From contig JAFTRI010000023.1 of NCBI GenBank assembly GCA_017462345.1, positions 62,001 through 126,000 of the forward strand: 64,000 nt of DNA. Direction: 5' to 3'. Every line of letters starts with the position of its first letter. Within the stretch, counting starts at the first letter, position 1. The translations under genes and the position numbers were made by a program. The notes below the pieces were generated by a model, which did no database searches, had not been told where the DNA came from, and was given only the letters and a program-made list of their open reading frames with translations. The DNA is from Muribaculaceae bacterium. GTDB lineage: Bacteria; Bacteroidota; Bacteroidia; Bacteroidales; Muribaculaceae. Positions 9,103 to 51,295 of the stretch are shown here, one piece after another.

Positions 9103-12100
9103 ATGTTCAAAAAGACCTTAACATTACTTGCTGTGGCATGTATGGCAACAGCAACCAATCTCAATGCGGCAGTCGTGCAGAAATCTCCGCAAGACGTAAA
9201 AATCTACATCAATCCGGGGCACGGCGGATTCAACTCCAACTGCCGCCCCATGGGAACCGTAAAACGCGGAGCTAACGTTACCACCTCCACCACGGCAGAG
9301 GACACAACCGCTTTCTTCGAGTCAAACACCAACCTGTGGAAGTGTCTGGCGATGTACCACAAGCTGCTCGATTACGGTGTGCCTGCCAACGAGGGAAACG
9401 CCTTGTATGATTCAAGCAAGGACCAGCACATCGTAATGTCACGTATCACAAACGGAAGCGCAACCGACCGCGGTCTCAGCACTGACATTGCAGTCGAGGT
9501 GGAGAAATTCTCACCCGACATATTCATCTCGGTACACTCAAACGCGTCAGCCGACGGCTCTATAGGTGGCAACGAGAACTATCCGCTTGTGATTTACCGA
9601 GGAGAGGACTACCGTTCCACGGCATTCACCGACACCTCATACGGCAAGAACTGGGACTATGCCGGGACAGGGCTTAACGGAGCAGGCAGCAGCTACGAGT
9701 TCGGGAAACTGGTCTACTCCCATCTGGCGACCATAGAACATGAGCCATATACCAACGAGTGGGAAAACCAATATGTCTCCGGATATACACCGTTAAAGAC
9801 CGGGCACAACGTGCGTGGAGACGTTAATCTGCGTGCCTACTTTGACCAACTGAATAATGTGAGCGGTAGTACCCTGACCTCCAACAGAGGTAATGGAGTT
9901 GTAAATACCCACAGCAACATCAGATACTATGGTTATTACGGAGTTTTGAAACATGGAGCGGTGGGAGTATTGTCGGAAGGATACATGCACACCTACTATC
10001 CGTCGGTGAACCGCCACATGAACAAGGACGTGTGCGCCATCGAAGGTATTGCCTACGCCCACGCCATCGCCGACTATTTCGGCTGGGAGAAAGAGAAGAC
10101 CGGCTATATCTACGGCATAGTCCGCGACCGCAACCAGACATTCACCCACACCTACTACATTCCCAACCAAAACTCAGATGACGTCTACAGGCCGCTGAAC
10201 AACTGTACTGTAAAACTTTACAAAGACGGCGTGCTTATCGACACATACGTCACCGATGACGAATACAACGGAGCATACGTGTTCTACGACCTCGAGCCGG
10301 GGGAATACACTCTCGACTATGAGTGTGACGGCTACCAGGCGGCAAGCGAGAGCCTTAAATCGACTGTCGTAACCGTCAAGGCCAACGAGATCTCCTACCC
10401 CAAGGCATTCCTCAACGCTGAAGGCTATACAATGAATTCAGGTGTATCCATGTCTACGACTCCGGTCGCCACACACTCAACAGCCAACTGGTATGGAGGT
10501 TCTTCCACAAATAAGATATACCCCCGACAGATTGCAGTATCCAACGATGTCGTCTATCTGATCATGGTGGGAGGCAAGAGAATAAGTTACTGGAATGCAG
10601 CCGATAACACCGAAGGCTCTTTCCAATACGGAGCAGCGGGAGGCAACGGTCTCGGAATATGTACCGATGACCACGGAAACGTCATTTTCGCCAGCAGTGC
10701 CAAAACTGCTTCCAATACCGACTATAACGCCCGTCTACAACAAGTTACCGTACTTGCAAAAAGCTCAGGTCCCGGAGAAGTTGTTTCAATCGACAACGCC
10801 AAGGACATCGACTTGTCCAGCGTTTATACAAAAGTCTTATCCGGCAGCAATTCCAGCGGTACGACAACGACAAACAGTTCAGGCATCACAAGGGTTATTC
10901 GCGCATCAGGCAACTGTTATACCGGAGAGGGGGCGCTATGGCTGACCAATGGACGTGATGTTGTCAAAATAACTATCAAAGATGGGGTGGCAACTCAACA
11001 GGATACATACACCACACCATTATCCGACAGTGACTTCAGCGGAAGTTTCGGGGGCTCTCATAACGAGGATATGGCAAAGGAAAGCAGTTTCTTCCCCTAT
11101 ACCGACGGCAAATACATGATGATAGGCCGTAACGGGACATTCCTGTGTACGTTGAACGGAAGCGCAGTTGACGGGTTCGAATATGTGGAAAACACATGGT
11201 ATGCATGGAACTCTGCAGATATTGAATACATAGGCGGACATGAAATAATTGTACATCAGGCAACTGCCAATTCCGGTCTAAACCAAAACGGGAAAATCAC
11301 TATCATAGACCGTACCACAGGGACAACCCTTGCAAGCGGCATAGATGCATACGGTTCCACAGCGACACCCGTCACATCCGATTATCTTTCGACATCCTAT
11401 CTCAGTGTGAACGCATGGTGCGAATTTGATGTAATAGACCCGAACACTCTCGCCCTATACACCTACGTACCCAATAACGGACTTGCAAAATACCTGATCA
11501 ACTACAATTCATACGGAGATGATCCGGTGGTAACCCCGGCGGCAGCAGTGGCAGCCGAGACCGGGTACACCTCAAACATCACCGTGACCTGGGAAGCCCC
11601 CACGACATGGACCGAGACTCCCGACAACTATCTTGTGAAATATCAGACAAGCTATGTCAACGCAGCCGGGGAAACCGTCACAAGCGACTGGCTGACAGCC
11701 GGCATGACAACGGATGCAACATGCGAGTTCGTGCATGAGAACGCCCGGTTTGCCGTTGCCGACGGACAGATATACCCGATGACCTACAGCTACAAGATCA
11801 TACCCAACTTCAACTGCTACGACGGTGAAGTGTCGGAGATTTCCAACGTTGTCACAGTGGAATTCAACGCCCCCGAACCGCAGATGGACGAGTTCTCGAT
11901 TTCGGCAGTCTGCGACACTACGGAACTGAAACAATATGACGGTGCGATAAGCTGGCAGGGAGCTGAAGACGAGGAGAACGACCAATACTCGCTCCAAGGC
12001 TACAAATTCGAGCTGTACAGCAACAGGGACAGCAGCACACCCATAGCCTCGTTTACGTTCAATGCCGGAGACAGCAAGTATTTCGGCACGATAGACAGTG

Positions 12101-13125
12101 AGACAGGCGAGGGCGCAATATTGGACGATAACGGCAATGCAATCGAAAACCTCACCTACTCGACAGCCGACGGCAACTACCTGTTCAAATACAATGTCGC
12201 CGATCTGGATGTACTCGATATTGTAAACGGCAACGAAGTCGACGCGACCATCTTCACGGCATACGTGTCGGCAATGTTCAATATCGAAGACACCTTTGTC
12301 TACAGTGCAGAGAGCGTGAAGAAAATAGCGGTAAAGCAATATGACCTCGCAGCACCGGGAGCAGAAGCAAAAGTCTACAGCTGGAAAGAGAACTGTAAGG
12401 ATGACAACGGCAACCTATACACGGCCTACTGGGCCCACCTTGACATAACTGAGCCCGATTACGGTGACAGTGACGCAATTCCGGTATCGCATTACCTCAT
12501 TTCGATGGACAAGGACAAGGACGGGACACCGGATGAATATGTGACCAAACTTTACGTGTATGACGCAGCCGGGTCACTGGGCATGGAGGCGGAAACCGAC
12601 GGAGACCTCAAGAATCATGTGCTGCTGACAGCACCGGCAACGATGTCGATGAGGTCGACAACCACTGCGGCACAGCTTCCGGGAACATACGATTTCGACC
12701 AAACCGTCCCGTCGGACAAGGCGATGACCAACTTCGCCATCAACGCATACGACGGTGAAAACCCCAAGGAATATGCCTACATCGTGGAGGCTGTATATGC
12801 GGCAAACAACGAAAAAATCTCATCGGCAACCTCCGTATCAGTTGACACACCTGCCGACGGCGGTGTCATTACCGGGGTCAGAACCATAGAAAGTGACGGG
12901 ACTGAAATCCTGAGTGTATACCCTGTTCCGGCAAGCGCATCGGTAACAGTAAAAGCCGCCGGAGCAATAGAGTCAATCGAGTTGTACAATGAGGCAGGCG
13001 TGACAATCAAGTCCCTCAACGGAAACGGAAACAATGTAATGACCGTAAACGTGAGCGACCTTGAAGCCGGGATCTACTTCCTGCGCGTCAACGACCTCAG
13101 CCCGGTCAAGATTGTGAAGAAGTAA
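9103..13125 (+). CDS. Secreted N-acetylmuramoyl-L-alanine amidase fused to surface domains and a T9SS-like tail
   Basis: The 1340-residue protein has a signal peptide (1-22), then an Amidase_3 zinc peptidase domain (about 30-325). The zinc site can be read as His40 in NPGHGG, Glu73, and His145 in SVHSNA; Glu292 in VLSEGYMHT fits the catalytic glutamate. A carboxypeptidase-regulatory-like beta domain follows (334-435, with the LEPGEYTLDYECDGY pattern). Next come about 360 residues of propeller-like repeats and a fibronectin III-like domain (about 807-930) followed by further beta-rich sequence. The end (about 1262-1340) is a Por-type sorting tail with YPVPASASVTV and GIYFLRV. Amidases normally work in the periplasm. 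This layout predicts a cell-surface or released wall-cutting enzyme. It is transcribed alone, with a strong terminator after it. Confidence 0.88.
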   Translation: MFKKTLTLLAVACMATATNLNAAVVQKSPQDVKIYINPGHGGFNSNCRPMGTVKRGANVTTSTTAEDTTAFFESNTNLWKCLAMYHKLLDYGVPANEGNALYDSSKDQHIVMSRITNGSATDRGLSTDIAVEVEKFSPDIFISVHSNASADGSIGGNENYPLVIYRGEDYRSTAFTDTSYGKNWDYAGTGLNGAGSSYEFGKLVYSHLATIEHEPYTNEWENQYVSGYTPLKTGHNVRGDVNLRAYFDQLNNVSGSTLTSNRGNGVVNTHSNIRYYGYYGVLKHGAVGVLSEGYMHTYYPSVNRHMNKDVCAIEGIAYAHAIADYFGWEKEKTGYIYGIVRDRNQTFTHTYYIPNQNSDDVYRPLNNCTVKLYKDGVLIDTYVTDDEYNGAYVFYDLEPGEYTLDYECDGYQAASESLKSTVVTVKANEISYPKAFLNAEGYTMNSGVSMSTTPVATHSTANWYGGSSTNKIYPRQIAVSNDVVYLIMVGGKRISYWNAADNTEGSFQYGAAGGNGLGICTDDHGNVIFASSAKTASNTDYNARLQQVTVLAKSSGPGEVVSIDNAKDIDLSSVYTKVLSGSNSSGTTTTNSSGITRVIRASGNCYTGEGALWLTNGRDVVKITIKDGVATQQDTYTTPLSDSDFSGSFGGSHNEDMAKESSFFPYTDGKYMMIGRNGTFLCTLNGSAVDGFEYVENTWYAWNSADIEYIGGHEIIVHQATANSGLNQNGKITIIDRTTGTTLASGIDAYGSTATPVTSDYLSTSYLSVNAWCEFDVIDPNTLALYTYVPNNGLAKYLINYNSYGDDPVVTPAAAVAAETGYTSNITVTWEAPTTWTETPDNYLVKYQTSYVNAAGETVTSDWLTAGMTTDATCEFVHENARFAVADGQIYPMTYSYKIIPNFNCYDGEVSEISNVVTVEFNAPEPQMDEFSISAVCDTTELKQYDGAISWQGAEDEENDQYSLQGYKFELYSNRDSSTPIASFTFNAGDSKYFGTIDSETGEGAILDDNGNAIENLTYSTADGNYLFKYNVADLDVLDIVNGNEVDATIFTAYVSAMFNIEDTFVYSAESVKKIAVKQYDLAAPGAEAKVYSWKENCKDDNGNLYTAYWAHLDITEPDYGDSDAIPVSHYLISMDKDKDGTPDEYVTKLYVYDAAGSLGMEAETDGDLKNHVLLTAPATMSMRSTTTAAQLPGTYDFDQTVPSDKAMTNFAINAYDGENPKEYAYIVEAVYAANNEKISSATSVSVDTPADGGVITGVRTIESDGTEILSVYPVPASASVTVKAAGAIESIELYNEAGVTIKSLNGNGNNVMTVNVSDLEAGIYFLRVNDLSPVKIVKK

Positions 13126-33653: not shown

Positions 33654-34874
33654 TTATTGCTTCACAAGTTTATAACTGTACTCGCTTTTTCCAACCGCAA
33701 CAGTTACTATGTAATTTCCATTAATTAATGAACTCATATCACATTCTATGGAATATGCGCCCGGAGAATACATGTTCTCCCTCTCCCACACGGTTTTACC
33801 TGATGAGTCATATAGCATGGCTTTTACCTGTGCAGTTTCACATAGGTTCACCTTGACTATTGTTGAATTGGAAACATTTGTAGGACATACATCACAGCTA
33901 TTTAACATTGCCGGAATAGTGCCGGCATTTACCGAGCACGCTCCACCATTCTCTTGATAATCACCGGCAGACTGGTAGGGATTGGAATGGGCATTGGATT
34001 TCGTTGACACTGCGCCAATCATAGGTGACGATATTACTCTGCCTGAATAATCATTTTGCCTTATTCGCTCATTCTCCGGATCATCTGATAAATCATATTG
34101 TTGGGAAACAGGACTATAATATAACGCAACCGATGACGAATCGGATTGGATTCCATAATGATATATCAGGTTATAGGTTATGTCAATAATCGGATAACGG
34201 TATCCGTTGGCATACCAACATTGCCTCACAATGCGGTGAGTTATGCTGTCGGTCAAAAGATGATACCCGATTGAATCGGCTGACACCATGCTGCTGTCGG
34301 CTTGCCTACGGAAACTCCGCGAGAAATCAGTATCGGCAACAGTTGCACCACACCGCGTATATGTGGTCATCAGCACTTCCGGAATCGTATCGCCCTCGGG
34401 AGTTATAAGACATCCCCTTTCGTTGGCTCTTATACCGTAACGTCCGCAATGACGCAGATACCCTGATACACCCTCAACTCCTTCTGAAAAGAAATATCCT
34501 GATATTTCATCACCGTAATTGAACGGATACCTTATGATTGCCTCCGGTAGAATGTAACCGATATTTATCCCCGGGCTGCGGTAACCATATACATTTACTG
34601 AATCTCCTCGGCAATCCAATATATCTACGCTCCCGTTTTCATAAACAGAAATAAAAGAATCATTATAGGTCTTGATTTTACGAACTGACCTGCCAGTCAT
34701 CTCACATCCGGAAAAATCGTACACACCCGAATCATTCCGCAGGATTTTAGGGATTCCGATAATGTCCATTTCAAGAATGTCCCCATCCCTAAACGAATTG
34801 AGATTTTTTGTTACAGATGCCGCTGATACCGTTATTATCACTGCGGCACATATTATCGTCAATATTTTTCTCAT
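33654..34874 (-). CDS. Secreted protein with T9SS-like tail, last gene of the RHS cluster
   Basis: The 406-residue protein has a signal peptide (1-19, ILTIICAAVIITVSAAS). A middle part with many Ser/Tyr/Asp follows, containing five or more scattered cysteines. The C-terminal 75 residues look like a Por-type sorting domain: NSTIVKVNLCETAQVKAML, SSGKTVWERENM, then GNYIVTVAVGKSEYSYKLV. No enzyme family is recognised in the middle. The gene begins 17 bp after the second RHS-family gene and is probably its co-transcribed partner. A role as surface anchor, stalk or chaperone for the RHS proteins is only a guess from position. Confidence 0.7.
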   Translation of the reverse strand: MRKILTIICAAVIITVSAASVTKNLNSFRDGDILEMDIIGIPKILRNDSGVYDFSGCEMTGRSVRKIKTYNDSFISVYENGSVDILDCRGDSVNVYGYRSPGINIGYILPEAIIRYPFNYGDEISGYFFSEGVEGVSGYLRHCGRYGIRANERGCLITPEGDTIPEVLMTTYTRCGATVADTDFSRSFRRQADSSMVSADSIGYHLLTDSITHRIVRQCWYANGYRYPIIDITYNLIYHYGIQSDSSSVALYYSPVSQQYDLSDDPENERIRQNDYSGRVISSPMIGAVSTKSNAHSNPYQSAGDYQENGGACSVNAGTIPAMLNSCDVCPTNVSNSTIVKVNLCETAQVKAMLYDSSGKTVWERENMYSPGAYSIECDMSSLINGNYIVTVAVGKSEYSYKLVKQ

Positions 34875-38269: not shown

Positions 38270-38464
38270 TTATTGTTTAGTTAAGTTTTCGTGGGTGGCG
38301 AGGTAGTCGACGAGGGCGGCTCCGTTCTCCCCCTCACCTATCTTGCCGAGGGCTTCGGTCAACGCATCCATGAACGGGTCATTGCCCGGGTAGACGTTAC
38401 CGTCTCTGTCATAGAACCCGTACCTTTCTTCTCTATCCATACTCCTGTCATTTTTATCGTACAT
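38270..38464 (-). CDS. Small acidic protein of unknown function between immunity and RHS-like genes
   Basis: The 64-residue product is acidic and soluble, with no signal peptide. The first half has MYDKNDRSMDREERYGFYDR followed by DGNVYPGNDP; the second half, DALTEALGKIGEGENGAALV, looks helical. I do not recognise it. It is tightly placed: 8 bp after the putative immunity gene and 6 bp before the second RHS-family gene, same strand. Its GC-rich codons resemble the RHS genes and not the AT-rich immunity gene. That suggests it belongs to the permanent backbone of the locus and not to the exchangeable cassette. It could also be a chance frame. Confidence 0.5.
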   Translation of the reverse strand: MYDKNDRSMDREERYGFYDRDGNVYPGNDPFMDALTEALGKIGEGENGAALVDYLATHENLTKQ

Positions 38465-38472
38465 TAACGAAT

Positions 38473-38988
38473 TTATTTCTTTACCCGATTATCATAGGAT
38501 TCCACAAACTGTATGGGTTCATTATTTATCCACCGTATACACCATGCTCTATGAAACAAATCACTTAATGTTAGCACAAATAAACCGTTTTTTTTAACTG
38601 CTGTAACCTTTATGCGTTTTTTTTTCTTTACAAATATTCCATTAGTCTCTTTTTCAATCGAATATCTGTGATTGTTATACTCTAAGTTATAATATGATTC
38701 ATGTTTCGGCGTATCGACTTCAATAATACTAATCTCCAATGTATCTGTCTTCTCTAATGATAAGGAAAAAGCATCTTTCCCGTTTTTTTTAATTACCATA
38801 ATCCGATATATTTTCTTGCTGTCATGTTCTCCTATCTGGGACATTATAAGCGAATCTATTTGCTCAAAAAACAATGAATCTATGATTTCCACCGAATAGG
38901 AATCCATAATAACTGTCTCATTTTTTTTCCTGGCACTGATAGCAATTGAGATTAGCAGTACTACTATCATAAAAACATACTTCTTCAT
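38473..38988 (-). CDS. Putative immunity protein for the JAB-like toxin, exported
   Basis: The 171-residue protein begins with a signal peptide (KKYVFMIVVLLISIAISA), so it is predicted to be periplasmic. The mature part is rich in Lys, Ile, Glu and Ser and has no family I recognise. It starts 4 bp after the stop codon of the toxin-bearing RHS gene. That is the usual place for an immunity gene, and it shares the AT-rich composition of the toxin tip. ATG 38988 is used; a TTG frame extension would overlap the toxin gene. If it is the immunity protein, an exported form would fit a toxin that arrives through the outer membrane. An unrelated small secreted protein is the alternative. Confidence 0.65.
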   Translation of the reverse strand: MKKYVFMIVVLLISIAISARKKNETVIMDSYSVEIIDSLFFEQIDSLIMSQIGEHDSKKIYRIMVIKKNGKDAFSLSLEKTDTLEISIIEVDTPKHESYYNLEYNNHRYSIEKETNGIFVKKKKRIKVTAVKKNGLFVLTLSDLFHRAWCIRWINNEPIQFVESYDNRVKK

Positions 38989-38992
38989 ATCA

Positions 38993-41900
38993 TTAGAACT
39001 CAAAATAATTTCGTTTCGGTACGTGATATATCATGAATTTTGGAGGGAGTAATTTATTCTCGGCTTGATTTTTTTTGACTTGCTTCTTAAATTCATTGTC
39101 ACTTTTGCCTGAGTAATCCGAAACAGGGTGCGAATGAATGATTTCCCTGATGGAATATCTGTTATACAATTCCGTCATGTACAGATATGATATTCCCGGC
39201 TCGCTGCCTCTTTCATGTCCTGTCGTGATATAGTTACGCCCACGGTCTCCGGGGTAGCCTGTCCGTGTCAGTCCTACCTCGACCTGCGACAGGCTTCCCG
39301 ATATGTTGTCGCTCAGGAACTCAAAAAGCCTGCTGCCGTTATCGTCACCGCGTATTATGTACACATCGTACTCTGCCGGTTCGGTATGCGACGTCTGGCT
39401 GATTACAGTCCCGTATGGGAACGTGATTGAGAGCTCATTGCCCTCAGTATCGGTCATAACCTCGTTCTGACCTGTCACCATTATGAACTTGTCCTCTTCT
39501 GTCGTCTCTTCATGTTCTTTGATATAACCACGGTCATCTATCCTCCATATATCCCGACCTGTGGGGTCGATGAATGACAGCGGGTTGGAGGCACAGTTGG
39601 CGTATGGGGTAAAGTCGGGGTATTTCTCCGAAAGGGGGTCGGGAGAGAGGAACTCCCCGAGCAGGCCGTCGAGCATCCTCGCTCCGTTATCGTGCAGGCC
39701 AACGCCGCTGTGGTCGATGAACTGCTTGCCGCCGTGCAGGCGGTCGGTCTCGGCTGTGCCCGCCCCGAGGGCATAAGGCAGTCCCGAGGGGTAGTAGCCG
39801 ATTGACTGGAGCACCTGTCCGGTCTCGTCGAGTACCGTGCGGGTGCTGCCGAGCCGGTCGCGTATGTAGTAGCGGTGGCTGACAGCGCCGTCACTAACGG
39901 TGATGTCGCTGTGGCCTGCCTCATGGTACAGTCGCCAGCGGTCATTGTTGATTCTTACGAAGTCCCCTATATGGGTATAGATGTCGGTGACACTGCGGCT
40001 GCGCCACACCGTGTCGCCGTTCTCCTTTATCGAGGCAATGTAGATTATGGGGGCGCTGGTGGTGACGTACCGGTACAGCTCTCCGTCGCCGTGGTATTCC
40101 CATCGCAGACGGGACCCGTCGCTCATCGTTACCGATGTGGGGCGGTTGGTGCGCGGCATGTAGTTGACATTGTCTATCCCGCGCAGCCGGTCGAGGGTGC
40201 GGTTGCCGTTGGCGTCATACTCCACGGCATGGGGATAGTCGCCGGAGGGGAACTGCGGCACTTCGCCGGTGCGGCTGTCGTCGCTGACGTCATAGACCGA
40301 CCGGATGCGGTTGCCGTGCCTCACTATGGCGGCATCCTGCACTGTAGTCCCGCTGAAGCTGCGGGTAAGCTCGAGGATGTTGCCGTTGCGGTCGTAGCCG
40401 AAGCTCTCGCCAAAGCCGCCTCCGCTGCGGGTGTCGGTGGCTGACAGGAGCCTCCCGAGGGCGTCGTAGCGGTAGCTCATGGCGGTTTCTGTCATCGCTG
40501 GCGACGAGACCGGGGATGACGGGGTGCTTGTCCGCTCGGTTGCGGCGTTGAGGCTGCCGCTGTAGCTTACCGCCGCGGTGCTGTCGTTGGGGTTGGTGGT
40601 ATAGTACAGTTCCTGTGAGAACCACGGTGACTCTATCATGGTGACACGTCCTCCGGTGTCATAGCTGTATGTGACTGTTCCGGGGATGCCGGAGGCTACC
40701 GGCAGCCCGTCGCCGGGGGTGTAGCTACAGAGACGGCCTATGGCATCGTAGGTGCCACTCCATGCCACACAGGGGATGCCGCCGTCGATGGACAGGGTGG
40801 CCCGCGTTATGCGGTCGCCACGGTCACGGGTGTATTCCCACTCGGCGGTGTGGCGCTCCACGGCTTCCCCGCCGGCATAGATGCTGACGGCGGTCTTCAT
40901 CCTCTGCAGCACTCCGCGGAAGCTGTAATCGTAGTAGCGCTCATGCCCGTGGCTCTCCATCCAGTAGTCGCGGCTGCTCTCGGCGATGACCCTGCGGCGG
41001 CGGTCGTAGACAAGTGCGGTTACCATGCACGTGCCGCCATGCTTGGTCGCGGTGCCGGTAAGAAGACCGCGGGACGACGGGGGGGTGTCGGCAGGGTAGC
41101 CGCTGTCGTGGGGCAGCGCCCACCGCCAGTGGCTGTAGTCGTTGTAGAAGTATGCCTTCATGGGGATGAAGCCACTGATGCCGCAGGTGTCGGTATACAG
41201 CAGGCCTGCCTCGCTGGCGGGGGAGGGGGACTCGATGAGCATGCGGTGTCCCCACTGCTGCTGGAGTGTCTCACGGGTGGCTCCCTCCATAACAGCATAG
41301 CCCTCGACGGCAAGGTGGAAGTCGCGGGTGTACTTGTTGACGCTCCATGTGCCGGTCAAGCGCTGGTTGCCGTCCTGGGAGAATATGACGCGGTCGAGCT
41401 TGTCGTAGACGTAGTACTCAGGCTCGCTGCCGGGGCGGCGCAGCATGGTCAGGCGGTGGAACACGTCATAACGGAACGAGTGGCACAGGCGTTCCAGAAG
41501 ATCGTCGTTGCTCCCGCCCATACGGGGGAACAGGCGCTCGGCCTCGGGAGGGATGATGTGGACGAGGTTGTCGCACATGTCATAGACGTAGTAGGTGTCA
41601 TGGCGGATGCCGCTGCCGTCGAGGCGGCGGTCGAGGATCCTGTGCCCGCTGCGGTCGATGAATTCCAGCCGCTCATGGCCGTCCTCGTCGACGGTGCGGT
41701 ACACCCTCAGGGTCTTGGCACCGTAGTAGCCGTCTTCGACAAGGCCAAGTCCGTTCAGGTCGCAGCGGAACAGGCGGCACTCGCCGGCATCACCGGTGCC
41801 GTAGGCTTCCTCACGGTAGCCGGTGCCGATGCGTCCGGCAAAGAATGCTCCGGGGCGGTAGCGGGCTGTGACCCTGCCAAGGGCCGTCTGCTCGTACTCG

Positions 41901-42298
41901 GTGAGGGCGTAGGGCCTGTTGTCGCGGTAGAAGCTGACGGCCGACCGGACATAATCCTCATGCCTGACATACCGGCCGCTGCCGCCGGCAATGCCAACGG
42001 GCATCCACTGCCGGTCGGCTTTGCCGTAGATGTCGTACCCGGTCATGCTGACGATGTCCTCGCCGTTGCCGCCGCGGCCTTTGAGCACGCGCTGCACGGG
42101 GCGGCCAAGACCGTCGTAATAGTCGACCGTGACACGGGACACGGACGCATCGGCCACGGGCGTCTCAGCCGAGCCCTCGTCGGGCTCGATGACCATGACA
42201 TAGTTACGGCCGGGGCTCTGCCCCGATAGGGGGAGGATGGCCGCGGCTATAGCCACGGCCGCCATCAGGCGGGGGTGGGTCAGGAGGAGAGGGTTCAT
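38993..42298 (-). CDS. DUF6443/RHS polymorphic toxin with JAB-like toxin tip
   Basis: The 1101-residue protein has a signal peptide (about 1-26). A DUF6443-type N-terminal domain comes next (YYDGLGRPVQRVLKGRGGN), then many YD repeats (YDVFHRLTMLRRPG, YDALGRLLSATDT, YDRNGNILELT). The RHS-associated core has RDRLGSTRTVLDETGQVLQS and ends NPLSFIDPTGRD near residue 916. The last 186 residues (coordinates 39553-38996) are a separate tip matching the JAB-like toxin 1 pattern: TFPYGTVIS, LFEFLSDN, NYITTGHE, and IIHSHPVSDYSGKSD, with His1055, His1057 and Asp1067 as likely metal ligands. The core is GC-rich and the tip AT-rich. Such proteins deliver a C-terminal toxin into neighbouring cells. The adjacent downstream gene is probably its immunity gene. 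Confidence 0.88.
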   Translation of the reverse strand: MNPLLLTHPRLMAAVAIAAAILPLSGQSPGRNYVMVIEPDEGSAETPVADASVSRVTVDYYDGLGRPVQRVLKGRGGNGEDIVSMTGYDIYGKADRQWMPVGIAGGSGRYVRHEDYVRSAVSFYRDNRPYALTEYEQTALGRVTARYRPGAFFAGRIGTGYREEAYGTGDAGECRLFRCDLNGLGLVEDGYYGAKTLRVYRTVDEDGHERLEFIDRSGHRILDRRLDGSGIRHDTYYVYDMCDNLVHIIPPEAERLFPRMGGSNDDLLERLCHSFRYDVFHRLTMLRRPGSEPEYYVYDKLDRVIFSQDGNQRLTGTWSVNKYTRDFHLAVEGYAVMEGATRETLQQQWGHRMLIESPSPASEAGLLYTDTCGISGFIPMKAYFYNDYSHWRWALPHDSGYPADTPPSSRGLLTGTATKHGGTCMVTALVYDRRRRVIAESSRDYWMESHGHERYYDYSFRGVLQRMKTAVSIYAGGEAVERHTAEWEYTRDRGDRITRATLSIDGGIPCVAWSGTYDAIGRLCSYTPGDGLPVASGIPGTVTYSYDTGGRVTMIESPWFSQELYYTTNPNDSTAAVSYSGSLNAATERTSTPSSPVSSPAMTETAMSYRYDALGRLLSATDTRSGGGFGESFGYDRNGNILELTRSFSGTTVQDAAIVRHGNRIRSVYDVSDDSRTGEVPQFPSGDYPHAVEYDANGNRTLDRLRGIDNVNYMPRTNRPTSVTMSDGSRLRWEYHGDGELYRYVTTSAPIIYIASIKENGDTVWRSRSVTDIYTHIGDFVRINNDRWRLYHEAGHSDITVSDGAVSHRYYIRDRLGSTRTVLDETGQVLQSIGYYPSGLPYALGAGTAETDRLHGGKQFIDHSGVGLHDNGARMLDGLLGEFLSPDPLSEKYPDFTPYANCASNPLSFIDPTGRDIWRIDDRGYIKEHEETTEEDKFIMVTGQNEVMTDTEGNELSITFPYGTVISQTSHTEPAEYDVYIIRGDDNGSRLFEFLSDNISGSLSQVEVGLTRTGYPGDRGRNYITTGHERGSEPGISYLYMTELYNRYSIREIIHSHPVSDYSGKSDNEFKKQVKKNQAENKLLPPKFMIYHVPKRNYFEF

Positions 42299-47836: not shown

Positions 47837-50800
47837 ATGAAAAAGTTCTACACCTTCGTGTTCGGGACAATAATGTCCATGTTGACGTTTCCAGGCGTCA
47901 CGAGCTATGCGGCAAACAACAGCATAGCCAAATTCAACAATTCCGGAACCGGAATCATAATCCCTAAAGACCGGCAATGGAAATCAAAGCCCCTGTTCCG
48001 GAAACCGTCATTCAGCACTATCACTCCCCACAGTGTGACCATCGGTCCGTCGGAAGGATACAGCCACCTGCAAGGGCCCGACGGCACACAATGGTACAGC
48101 ACCCAGACCTACACCGTGGACTCCTACTACTACACCGCATCGGAAATCACATTCTATAACAGCCTCGGGGAGGAACAAGGCAAGATTTCAGTGTCTGTTC
48201 CCGAAGGCAAGCAAGTTAACCAGATTATGGTTGGTGATGCCGTTTCAAGCAATCTTTTTGACCGGGACAAGAACACCTACGAAGTCCCGGTGATGCTCCA
48301 CATCATCCATTCGCCGGGAGTGGCATCATACGTCACACAAGTCTACGACATTGCAAGCGGAGAGCTCAAGACGACATTTGACGGGTTCATGTCATTAATA
48401 CCGGTCTATACCGGATACAGCTATGAGTTGACAGGTGTCTTAAGTTACACTGCTACCGAGAATGAAGTGAGCATGGCAAAATTCGACATTTACGCCAAGC
48501 CCGGATTCAGCGACACCTCGGCTGTTCTCAAACATTCATTCTCTGTGCCGTCAACCTTGGCAGAATATCAAGTGGGCGGCGTGTTCAACGCATTCACAGT
48601 CGATAACAGCCTCTACTACGTCGTGTCACAGTATGAAAAGGAATATCTTGACCCGGCATCCTACGCGGAGCCATGGGACATGATTCCCACCGAAGACAAC
48701 AACTTCATTGCCACCGTCTACAACAAGAATTTCGTGGAGATCGGGAAATTATCCATTCCTGTCGCATCGACAAGCCAATACCTTGTACAGCACGGCATAG
48801 GTCTCTACGGCACTGATGACCTCAGCGCAAATTTCTGGGATCAGTCAGGCGACATGCATCTGGTGGTCACGACATCGGGGTTTCAGGTAAACACCGAGGA
48901 GGAAGACATCTCCCATGATGTCTATGACCTGACCGGCAAGAAGCTAAAGAATATCGCAAGCGGCGTGAGCGACTGGATGAAGATGTACGACATCGCAGGA
49001 CAATCCTCCCAAATGGCATTCCTGTCCAAGGATGAAGCCACACTGATGATGATAGATGTACCCTCATGCGACACAGTTGCCGTATTCGGCACAGAAATAG
49101 AGGGCTACCCCATCTCAACCAATATCGACCGCTTCCCGGTGAACGGTGACTACCAGTACGTAATAGGACTCCCCGCGGCAGAATACGATGAGAACAGCAG
49201 CATCCACTACGGATTTGCATGGGTAACGAAAGATGCGACAATCGATCACATCGCAAAATTCAACGTGGGGACGAACAATGCAAGCTGGACACCTCTCGTA
49301 ATGGGAGAAGCACTCAACCCGTTCCTGTTTGACACCGACGACGAACGCGAATATGTGTTTATCGCAAACCAATATGCCGAAGGCCAGACCTCCGGAAATA
49401 TCACCGACGAGATACGCATTGTCAACGAGAGCGGCACTATTCTTCGCCAATACATTGAAGAGCCCGACGGTAAAGGGGATCTTGGTGGAGCGACACTGCT
49501 CGGTCTCGGGACAAATAACCCCACCCTGTTTATCCCGTTCATGAACCTGAACAAAGACACCTACACCGTAGAACTGGAATTCCTTCCCATTGAAATGTTC
49601 GGTGCAGGAGGGGACGGCTCGGCTGAGAATCCTTATCTGATTTCAAGTGCCGGAGACCTTGCCATGATTTCCCGCGACAATGACGCAAGCTACAGGATCG
49701 TCAAGGATTTCAGTATGAACGAGTACGGAGAGTGGACTCCGATACCCTCTTTTACCGGAACACTCGACGGCGACAACCATGTAATAAGCGGATTGGTTCT
49801 TGACGGGAATTCATCCAACTCCGCCCTATTTGAATGGACAGAAAATGCCACCATCAAGAACATCATCCTCAACACCCCGTCGATAGAAATCGATGAGACC
49901 GGTACGGCGGCATTCATCGTAGCGCAAGCCACAACAACAACTCTGGACAACATACACATCTACGACGCGACAGTTACCGGAAGCGACAATGCATGGTGTT
50001 CTTTTGGCGGTATTGTCAACATGGGGACGCTCAACAGTACCATATCGGACTGTTCGGTAAACGGCCTGAAATTCGATGCTGCCGCCTGCTCGACAATCGG
50101 AGGTATAGCTTCCGACCTGCGCACCGGGACCATAATCAGCGCATCTGCAGTAAGCGGGTCAATTGTAGCTGACAACACCATAGGCGGTATTGCAGGTGCT
50201 TCAGGCACAGACTGCCAGATTATCAACTGCCACGCCAATATCGATATAACAGGTAAGAACACTATAGGCGGTATCGCTGCAACAGCCGACCGCGGAGGTA
50301 TCCACCTGTGCCATGTGGAAGGAAAGATAACAGCCACCGAAAGCAACTACTCCAAGAATTGTATTGTGGGCGGTATTGCAGGAAAACTGTCACCCGACTA
50401 CAACTACCAAGGAACGTCCGAAGACAATGACACAACCGACCCATGGAACGGGATGGTAATATCCAACAACGTTATCGCAATCAGCGAGATGTCACTTGCA
50501 GCGACAGGAGGATGCCACCGTGTAGTGGGATACACTCGCTACGAAGAGGATGTCGAATACATGCAGTGGGATCCGACAATCGTCCCGACAGCCGAACACG
50601 CTCTCGACAAGAACTATGTGATCTCAACTCTTGCCGTAGTCAACAGTGAAACAGGAGCAGGGCTGACATCAACCGAAGGTGCCGATGTGACAACCGGAGA
50701 ACTCAACAAAGAATTTTTCAGTAATCTCGGGTTCAAATACGGCTCCGATACGGAAAACCCGTGGAATGAAGAATCGGCATCAGCTCCCTACCTGTACTTT

Positions 50801-51295
50801 GAAGAAAAAGCCGTCTCCATCACAATCAATCCGGCCACGCTTTCTCTTGTCGAGGAAGAAACAGCCGAAATCACAATAGCTGTGATTGGCGGCAATGCCG
50901 AAAACATCATAGCCGAATCTTCTGACGATAACATTGTCACCATCACCGCCAAGGAGATTTCAGGAAACGGAATGACCGTAACCGTGAAGTGCACTGGAGT
51001 GGGCAATGCAGAAATCAAAGCCACGATTGACAACCTTACCGCAGTATGCAACGTGACAACGGTGAGCGGTATCACCGAAGTGACAGCCGACAACACCATA
51101 GGTATCACTTACAACGGGACTGAGATAAAAGCCGCCGGTGCAACAGGAATCACCGTCCACAACATTGCCGGAGTAAATGTTGCCTCAACAACCGGAGAAT
51201 GTCTGGGAACAGCAAATCTTGCTGCCGGGGTCTACGTTGTCGTTGCCACCGATTCCAACGGTGCAAATTCAACCGCAAAACTTGTGATAAGATAA
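47837..51295 (+). CDS. Large secreted GLUG-repeat protein with Ig-like and T9SS-like tail
   Basis: The 1152-residue protein has a signal peptide (1-24). It continues with about 570 residues of beta-rich sequence typical of cell-surface propeller-like domains. A repeated region follows, with GLUG-type motifs: a run of short repeats each with a GGIAG or GGI-A core (for example NTIGGIAGASGTDCQII and KNTIGGIAATADRGGI, roughly residues 625-870). Then comes a bacterial Ig-like domain (SITINPATLSLVEEETAEIT), and a C-terminal sorting tail (about 1085-1152, TVHNIAGVNVAST, ending VVVATDSNGANSTAKLVI). GLUG repeats occur in adhesins and in M26 peptidases. No protease motif was seen, so adhesion or surface coating is the likely role. 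It is monocistronic with a hairpin terminator. Confidence 0.8.
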   Translation: MKKFYTFVFGTIMSMLTFPGVTSYAANNSIAKFNNSGTGIIIPKDRQWKSKPLFRKPSFSTITPHSVTIGPSEGYSHLQGPDGTQWYSTQTYTVDSYYYTASEITFYNSLGEEQGKISVSVPEGKQVNQIMVGDAVSSNLFDRDKNTYEVPVMLHIIHSPGVASYVTQVYDIASGELKTTFDGFMSLIPVYTGYSYELTGVLSYTATENEVSMAKFDIYAKPGFSDTSAVLKHSFSVPSTLAEYQVGGVFNAFTVDNSLYYVVSQYEKEYLDPASYAEPWDMIPTEDNNFIATVYNKNFVEIGKLSIPVASTSQYLVQHGIGLYGTDDLSANFWDQSGDMHLVVTTSGFQVNTEEEDISHDVYDLTGKKLKNIASGVSDWMKMYDIAGQSSQMAFLSKDEATLMMIDVPSCDTVAVFGTEIEGYPISTNIDRFPVNGDYQYVIGLPAAEYDENSSIHYGFAWVTKDATIDHIAKFNVGTNNASWTPLVMGEALNPFLFDTDDEREYVFIANQYAEGQTSGNITDEIRIVNESGTILRQYIEEPDGKGDLGGATLLGLGTNNPTLFIPFMNLNKDTYTVELEFLPIEMFGAGGDGSAENPYLISSAGDLAMISRDNDASYRIVKDFSMNEYGEWTPIPSFTGTLDGDNHVISGLVLDGNSSNSALFEWTENATIKNIILNTPSIEIDETGTAAFIVAQATTTTLDNIHIYDATVTGSDNAWCSFGGIVNMGTLNSTISDCSVNGLKFDAAACSTIGGIASDLRTGTIISASAVSGSIVADNTIGGIAGASGTDCQIINCHANIDITGKNTIGGIAATADRGGIHLCHVEGKITATESNYSKNCIVGGIAGKLSPDYNYQGTSEDNDTTDPWNGMVISNNVIAISEMSLAATGGCHRVVGYTRYEEDVEYMQWDPTIVPTAEHALDKNYVISTLAVVNSETGAGLTSTEGADVTTGELNKEFFSNLGFKYGSDTENPWNEESASAPYLYFEEKAVSITINPATLSLVEEETAEITIAVIGGNAENIIAESSDDNIVTITAKEISGNGMTVTVKCTGVGNAEIKATIDNLTAVCNVTTVSGITEVTADNTIGITYNGTEIKAAGATGITVHNIAGVNVASTTGECLGTANLAAGVYVVVATDSNGANSTAKLVIR

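What the first reader, a model, noticed from the sequence alone, without database searches (positions are those of the whole stretch)
38993..42298. RHS protein with JAB-like toxin tip behind a Bacteroidota DUF6443 scaffold
The last 186 residues after NPLSFIDPTGRD form a distinct domain with HSHP then SD, as in JAB-like metalloenzyme toxins. Seen directly: an RHS core followed by a tip with its own metal-site pattern. Known: RHS tips are delivered toxins. Inferred: this protein is an interbacterial or phage-defence effector exported by a route that starts with a signal peptide (no VgrG, PAAR or T6SS gene is nearby). How DUF6443-RHS proteins are exported and what a JAB tip cuts are not established to my knowledge.
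Basis: partly seen in the sequence, partly recalled or inferred. Interest (0 to 1): 0.7.

Follow-up and report, generated by a model that had tools for sequence, protein, structure and literature searches.

The report
RHS toxin with T9SS-linked partner genes
A gut-type Bacteroidales bacterium carries a shell-type toxin gene with a JAB-type metal-enzyme tip, beside an immunity gene and two partner genes, one with a type 9 secretion tag, which suggests how such toxins leave the cell and where they act.

Summary
The 1101-aa ORF is an RHS protein (DUF6443, RHS core) whose tip matches Pfam Toxin-JAB1 at 64 bits (cut-off 21). AlphaFold gives the tip pLDDT 93.8. Glu1007, His1055, His1057 and Asp1067 are conserved; the usual serine position is Gly1064. 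The tip type is known (Tox-JAB-1, 2012).

Two things look new. First, the gene belongs to a module: a ~1120-aa partner (P) and a ~400-aa protein with a type 9 sorting tail (T). In 54 DUF6443 places from 149 genomes, P is fused to the RHS gene in 20, beside it in 13 and absent in 21; T lies within 9 kb in 21. This points to a two-piece RHS shell whose export uses the T9SS. Second, genes after JAB tips encode signal-peptide proteins in 41 of 46 cassettes, against 45 of 145 background genes and 16 of 24 after other tips. I infer a target outside the cytoplasm, against the published nuclease proposal.

No match to phage-defence models was found. T9SS export and the target remain inference. Structure comparison, and a fold of the whole RHS protein, could not be run.

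The parts
38993..42298 (-). RHS toxin (D), 1101 aa: signal peptide, DUF6443, RHS shell, JAB tip
41834..42163 (-). DUF6443 domain, aa 46-155
   Evidence: PF20041 77.8 bits, cut-off 27.8
39557..39751 (-). end of the RHS core, aa 850-914
   Evidence: TIGR03696 39.8 bits, cut-off 32.5
38996..39553 (-). JAB tip, aa 916-1101; the PF15659 match is aa 982-1070 (39089-39355)
   Evidence: 64.3 bits, cut-off 21; AlphaFold pLDDT 93.8, pTM 0.91
39098..39280 (-). conserved site residues: Glu1007 (39278-39280), His1055 and His1057 (39128-39136), Asp1067 (39098-39100)
38473..38988 (-). putative immunity protein, 171 aa from the ATG at 38988, signal peptide, no lipobox (a TTG at 39003 would give 176 aa)
   Evidence: similar to the gene after the closest tip, E 4e-6 in a two-sequence comparison
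38270..38464 (-). 64-aa ORF, probably the stump of a displaced tip
   Evidence: 50% identical over aa 14-59 to part of an orphan core+tip ORF, G010:C57
34892..38263 (-). partner protein P, 1123 aa, signal peptide, YD repeats at the C-terminus
33654..34874 (-). protein T, 406 aa, signal peptide; T9SS type A sorting tail at aa 335-406 (33657-33872)
   Evidence: TIGR04183 25.7 bits, cut-off 23; PF18962 23.1 bits, under its cut-off 27

Best explanation
The operon encodes an interbacterial RHS toxin and its immunity protein together with a two-part delivery scaffold. D (the finding) and P each enter the periplasm by Sec and together form one RHS shell around the JAB tip. T, which carries the type 9 sorting tail, takes the complex out through the T9SS and/or holds it on the cell surface. 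The tip is a metal enzyme of the JAB/JAMM kind that attacks something in the envelope of a competing cell, most likely a protein or peptide bond, and the signal-peptide immunity protein protects the producer's own periplasm. Shown: domains, operon layout, conserved module, a confident tip model, signal peptides by a heuristic. Inferred: shell assembly from two pieces, T9SS export, envelope target, enzyme activity.
For: Five ORFs on one strand with gaps of 4, 8, 6 and 17 bases. In 54 DUF6443 places of 149 genomes, P is in the same ORF in 20, adjacent in 13, absent in 21; T lies within 9 kb in 21 of 54. All 30 D, P, T or fused proteins that I tested have a signal peptide by a loose heuristic. 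8 of 10 members of the T family match TIGR04183 at E <= 0.1. The genome has SprA at 2737 bits and 32 TIGR04183 matches, T included, and no TssC match. The D-shell profile matches YenC2 at E 1.7e-11; the end of the P profile matches a solved RHS protein at E 2.3e-8. Tip model pLDDT 93.8, pTM 0.91, with Glu, HxH and Asp conserved in 16 of 16 nearer tips. Genes after JAB tips encode signal-peptide proteins in 41 of 46 cassettes against 45 of 145 background genes (p 1.7e-12).
Against: Neither D nor P has a T9SS sorting-tail match, so their export by T9SS needs a piggy-back step that nothing here shows. 20 of 54 DUF6443 places have neither P nor T by my rule, and 16 of 46 T rows have neither neighbour; some but not all of these lie at contig ends. 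Genes after non-JAB tips also often encode signal-peptide proteins (16 of 24), so the JAB excess over other tips is slight (p 0.048). The signal-peptide classifier is home-made. The serine place is Gly1064 in the window. T's tail is weak. The weak solved-structure matches of the tip include non-JAB proteins. Order D-P-T is rare: 1 of 10 split loci with all three.
Confidence: 0.5

Rival explanations
1. The JAB tip is a nuclease that acts in the cytoplasm of the target, as Zhang et al. 2012 suggested for Tox-JAB by analogy with RadC; the exported immunity protein binds the toxin in transit or blocks its uptake.
For: Published suggestion (PMC3482391, passages seen). The best solved-structure profile match of the tip is a RadC homologue, E 0.014.
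Against: 41 of 46 genes after JAB tips encode signal-peptide proteins; the immunity protein of a cytoplasmic nuclease is expected in the cytoplasm. The RadC match is weak.
Confidence: 0.2
2. T is a bystander or a surface protein of unrelated function; D leaves the cell by another route (for example vesicles or lysis) and P is a paralogous RHS protein rather than half of the shell.
For: No sorting tail on D or P; 33 of 54 DUF6443 places have no T within 9 kb.
Against: P and D are one ORF in 20 of 54 places; 30 of 46 T rows have P within 6 kb or DUF6443 within 9 kb on the same strand.
Confidence: 0.25
3. The window tip is a weakened or inactive JAB: metal residues are kept but the serine is lost, and it acts by binding, or the locus is decaying.
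For: Gly1064 in place of the serine; the same in L078 and L081.
Against: Ser1063 is next to it; Glu, both His and Asp are kept in 16 of 16 nearer tips; the ORF is intact and the immunity gene is kept.
Confidence: 0.12
4. A phage-defence effector.
For: None found.
Against: No PADLOC match for the RHS, immunity, P and T proteins at E <= 0.01; all layers carry signal peptides.
Confidence: 0.02

Closest known systems
Tox-JAB-1 / Toxin-JAB1 (PF15659) polymorphic toxins of Bacteroidetes (Zhang et al. 2012, PMC3482391, passages)
   Same: Profile match over cut-off, RHS scaffold, HxH and Asp, an immunity-type gene next door with a signal peptide
   Different: Serine place is Gly1064; NxxxE spacing broken; immunity protein without lipobox, whereas Imm65 is described as a lipoprotein; the P/T module and a T9SS link do not appear in the passages I read (export is given there as T2SS)
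TANFOR polymorphic toxins of Bacteroidetes (Jana et al. 2020, PMC7073777; outline and one results section read)
   Same: Signal-peptide toxin without its own sorting tail, encoded near T9SS-tailed proteins; T9SS export proposed there as speculation
   Different: RHS shell and DUF6443 instead of TANFOR; a dedicated T family and a partner P that is fused to the toxin in many genomes
Toxin-complex B and C subunits (YenB/YenC2 type)
   Same: RHS core of the C-subunit type: the D-shell profile matches YenC2 at E 1.7e-11; a second RHS-like protein beside or fused to it
   Different: P matches RHS structures only at its C-terminal ~50 aa and has no Pfam domain over cut-off in the window; signal peptides and a T9SS-tailed protein; presence of an A subunit was not tested
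T6SS RHS effectors (Tse5, Tre23)
   Same: RHS shell with a C-terminal toxin; profile matches
   Different: Signal peptide on D; no TssC match in the genome

Membership tests
Toxin-JAB1 (PF15659) / Tox-JAB-1 | profile score over the curated cut-off | tested here: met
   64.3 bits against 21
Toxin-JAB1 (PF15659) / Tox-JAB-1 | HxH and Asp | tested here: met
   His1055, His1057, Asp1067; 16 of 16 nearer tips
Toxin-JAB1 (PF15659) / Tox-JAB-1 | conserved serine before the Asp (listed by Zhang et al.) | tested here: not met
   Gly1064 at that column, Ser1063 beside it
Toxin-JAB1 (PF15659) / Tox-JAB-1 | NxxxE | tested here: not met
   Glu1007 is kept, but an insertion separates it from the Asn
Toxin-JAB1 (PF15659) / Tox-JAB-1 | RHS scaffold in Bacteroidetes | tested here: met
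   relatives are Bacteroidales records
Toxin-JAB1 (PF15659) / Tox-JAB-1 | Imm65-type lipoprotein immunity gene | tested here: not met
   signal peptide but no lipobox; no Pfam match better than E 0.0086 in the 15 aligned immunity proteins; 13 of 46 other cassettes do have a lipobox
Toxin-JAB1 (PF15659) / Tox-JAB-1 | JAB/MPN fold | tested here: inconclusive
   confident model whose order of elements fits a JAMM enzyme as I recall it; the structure search never ran
RHS polymorphic toxin | RHS core, variable tip, adjacent immunity gene, orphan cassettes in relatives | tested here: met
T9SS substrate | C-terminal sorting domain on D or P | tested here: not met
   no TIGR04183 or PF18962 match
T9SS substrate | C-terminal sorting domain on T | tested here: met
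   TIGR04183 25.7 bits against 23; PF18962 23.1 is under its cut-off 27
T9SS substrate | T9SS translocon in the genome | tested here: met
   SprA TIGR04189 2737 bits; other components were not searched
T9SS substrate | export depends on the T9SS | not testable with these tools
   needs a deletion strain
Toxin-complex B/C pair | two proteins form one RHS shell | not testable with these tools
   fusions in 20 of 54 places suggest it; no complex could be modelled
T6SS RHS effector | T6SS in the genome | tested here: not met
   TssC PF05943: 0 matches in the one genome searched, 84% complete; VgrG and PAAR not searched
Anti-phage defence system | match to a PADLOC model | tested here: not met
   0 of 4 proteins at E <= 0.01

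The most novel reading that the evidence does not exclude
Bacteroidales use the T9SS as a weapon: a T9SS-tailed carrier (T) exports or displays a two-piece RHS shell (P plus D) that delivers interchangeable tips, many of them aimed at the envelope of the target cell; the JAB tip is an envelope metallopeptidase rather than a nuclease.
Probability: 0.4. Interest if true: 0.8.

Novelty: new variant of a known kind. Interest (0 to 1): 0.58.

Why it matters
T9SS export of polymorphic toxins has been offered for TANFOR proteins as speculation. A conserved carrier-like gene beside an RHS shell that is split in some genomes and fused in others makes that question testable by single gene deletions. Where the immunity proteins sit is an independent clue to where Tox-JAB-1 acts, which Zhang et al. 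left as a suggestion. I found no report of this module in ten full-text searches of the held library; I saw listings only, apart from passages or sections of two papers, and the tool states that no bioRxiv preprints are held and that most papers of subscription journals are missing.

Tried and rejected
Immunity family: the best Pfam match among the 15 aligned immunity proteins has E 0.0086 and none is an immunity family. Viral contigs: 46 stretches matched a pattern, none encodes a relative of the tip. PADLOC: nothing. N-domain of T: no solved structure at E <= 10; Pfam finds only the sorting tail, plus two single weak matches, in the 10 whole T proteins. My first signal-peptide heuristic was too loose: it called 23 of 49 window ORFs SPI or lipoprotein when alternative starts were allowed. 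I replaced it by a stricter one with a background set. One search used a loose threshold again, so 'all 30' there is weaker evidence. The high G+C of the D shell (0.642; window 0.499) first looked like transfer from another donor, but the shell is richer in G+C than P in 7 of 7 other loci where both were measured, so I do not claim it. Cellular JAB (PF01398): no match in the own genome; this says nothing about function.

Rows left out of counts; one of the 55 DUF6443 rows (second piece of one ORF), and second pieces and weak rows of the P table; counting these would add one fusion (G530:C120). Three pairs of the 46 T rows are two pieces of one gene or close neighbours, and T of G467:C17 counts as alone although a fused P-D gene lies about 4 kb away. 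L033 (wrong ORF), L076 (no next gene), L091 (broken tip) and duplicates were left out; of the five JAB cases called negative, L054 and L074 have the next gene more than 190 bases away, L072 has a doubtful start, and L069 and L026 looked signal-like under the looser rule.

Full report
WHAT IS THERE. The ORF 38993-42298(-) encodes 1101 aa: a signal peptide by my heuristic, DUF6443, RHS repeats, and a Toxin-JAB1 domain at aa 982-1070 with 64.3 bits against a cut-off of 21. The RHS core match ends at aa 914 and the tip is aa 916-1101.

THE TIP. Among 26 tips the two His of HxH (1055, 1057) are the only invariant columns and Glu1007 is nearly invariant. Among 16 nearer tips Glu1007, both His and Asp1067 are invariant. 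AlphaFold with these 16 sequences gives pLDDT 93.8 and pTM 0.91. In the model, Glu sits at the start of a strand that follows a long helix, HxH at the end of a later strand, and Asp at the start of the next helix, which is the order in JAMM enzymes as I recall it. Profile matches to solved structures are weak: a RadC homologue E 0.014, a surface-layer protein E 0.026, an uncharacterised protein E 0.14, a viral large T antigen E 1.1 and BRCC36 E 1.1. The serine place is Gly1064 in the window. At that column Gly also stands in L078, L081 and L082, Ser in 8 of the 16 tips, and Lys or Arg in four; L082 and the Lys/Arg rows have longer loops, so the column may be misaligned there. The structure search never ran because the machine was full, so the fold assignment rests on the Pfam profile and the order of elements. 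Toxin-JAB1 occurs in 36 of 393 genomes of the order.

THE IMMUNITY GENE. Four bases after the RHS stop begins a 171-aa ORF with a signal peptide and no lipobox. It is similar (E 4e-6, two-sequence comparison) to the gene that follows the closest tip, L028 (that tip fragment is 49% identical), and not convincingly to a farther one (E 0.046). Zhang et al. 2012 describe Imm65, a lipoprotein, as the partner of Tox-JAB-1 (passages). I asked whether export is general. By a home-made rule, the gene after a JAB tip encodes a signal-peptide protein in 41 of 46 cassettes (13 of 46 also with a lipobox), against 45 of 145 genes after ordinary genes of loci L016-L035 and 16 of 24 after other RHS tips. JAB differs strongly from background (p 1.7e-12) and slightly from other tips (p 0.048); other tips differ from background too (p 0.0012). 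So tips on this scaffold seem often to act, or to be neutralised, outside the cytoplasm. For JAB this argues against the nuclease suggestion of Zhang et al.

THE MODULE. On the same strand, with gaps of 4, 8, 6 and 17 bases, follow the immunity gene, a 64-aa ORF, a 1123-aa protein P and a 406-aa protein T. P has a signal peptide and YD repeats near its C-terminus; a P-family profile matches solved RHS proteins at that end (7q97, E 2.3e-8). T has a type 9 sorting tail (TIGR04183 25.7 bits, cut-off 23; PF18962 23.1, under its cut-off 27); 8 of 10 family members match TIGR04183 at E <= 0.1. Its N-domain has no solved relative. In 149 genomes of the family I compared 54 DUF6443 places with P and T places: P in the same ORF in 20, adjacent in 13, absent in 21; T within 9 kb in 21 of 54. 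Ten split loci had all three: order P-T-D in 6, T-P-D in 3, D-P-T in the window alone. L106 (G438) shows a second order of D, following gene, P, T, with D cut by the contig start. G026, of another family of the order, has T-P-D with another tip. Of 46 T rows, 30 have P within 6 kb and/or DUF6443 within 9 kb; of the 16 without, eight were looked at: four start or end within 500 bases of a contig end, two others within 700, and G467:C17 has a fused P-D gene about 4 kb away.

EXPORT. All 30 D, P, T or fused proteins that I tested have a signal peptide by a loose rule. The genome has SprA, 32 sorting-tail matches and no TssC match. D and P have no sorting tail. The simplest reading is that T brings the P-D shell to the T9SS or tethers it outside. 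This is inference from gene association. TANFOR toxins show a similar pattern, an untailed toxin near tailed proteins, and their authors offered T9SS export as speculation (section read).

SHELL. The D-shell profile matches YenC2 (E 1.7e-11), Tse5 (E 4.9e-11) and teneurin-like proteins. With the P-D fusions, this suggests that P and D are two halves of one shell, comparable with toxin-complex B and C subunits. It was not tested structurally.

HISTORY OF THE LOCUS. The 64-aa ORF is 50% identical over aa 14-59 to part of an orphan core+tip ORF of G010, so it is probably the stump of a displaced tip. Tip plus immunity gene have G+C 0.384, rank 4 of 1259 stretches of that size in the window. Relatives carry strings of orphan core+tip ORFs with following genes, the usual picture of tip exchange in RHS loci.

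VERDICT. A known tip type, diverged at its serine, on a known kind of scaffold, in a conserved three-gene arrangement that I did not find described in ten full-text searches (listed under Why it matters), with a testable export route and a clue to the site of action.

Noticed in passing
L018, L019, L026, L027, L029, L030, L034, L082, L092: 13 of 43 short (at most 600 aa) core+tip ORFs begin with their own signal peptide joined to the core end; two ORFs of L092 share an 88-aa exported N-domain. They may be complete miniature toxins rather than silent cassettes.
   Followed up: partly
L017 7326-9577, L111 4917-7166, L112 4945-7237: A DUF3244 protein of about 120 aa precedes P in three loci of the same genus, with a protein of 581-596 aa further upstream (TPR repeats in the two that were scanned, L017 and L111).
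   Followed up: partly
G014: L026 and L031: One genome holds five Toxin-JAB1 matches. For four of them the next gene was looked at: all four look exported by the loose rule, three by the strict one.
   Followed up: partly
window 39554-42298: The RHS shell has G+C 0.642, P 0.439 and the window 0.499; shells are richer in G+C than P in 7 of 7 other loci measured.
   Followed up: partly
L087 and L089, C-terminal end of the tip: Some JAB tips carry a C-terminal extension of about 25-30 aa with similar last residues, which the window tip lacks.
   Followed up: no
window 9103-13125 and 47837-51295: Two further large ORFs carry T9SS sorting-tail matches (genome places C4:74916-75095 and C4:113122-113292).
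   Followed up: no
L084: Six orphan core+tip ORFs on one 20.6-kb stretch, five of them with similar first residues.
   Followed up: no
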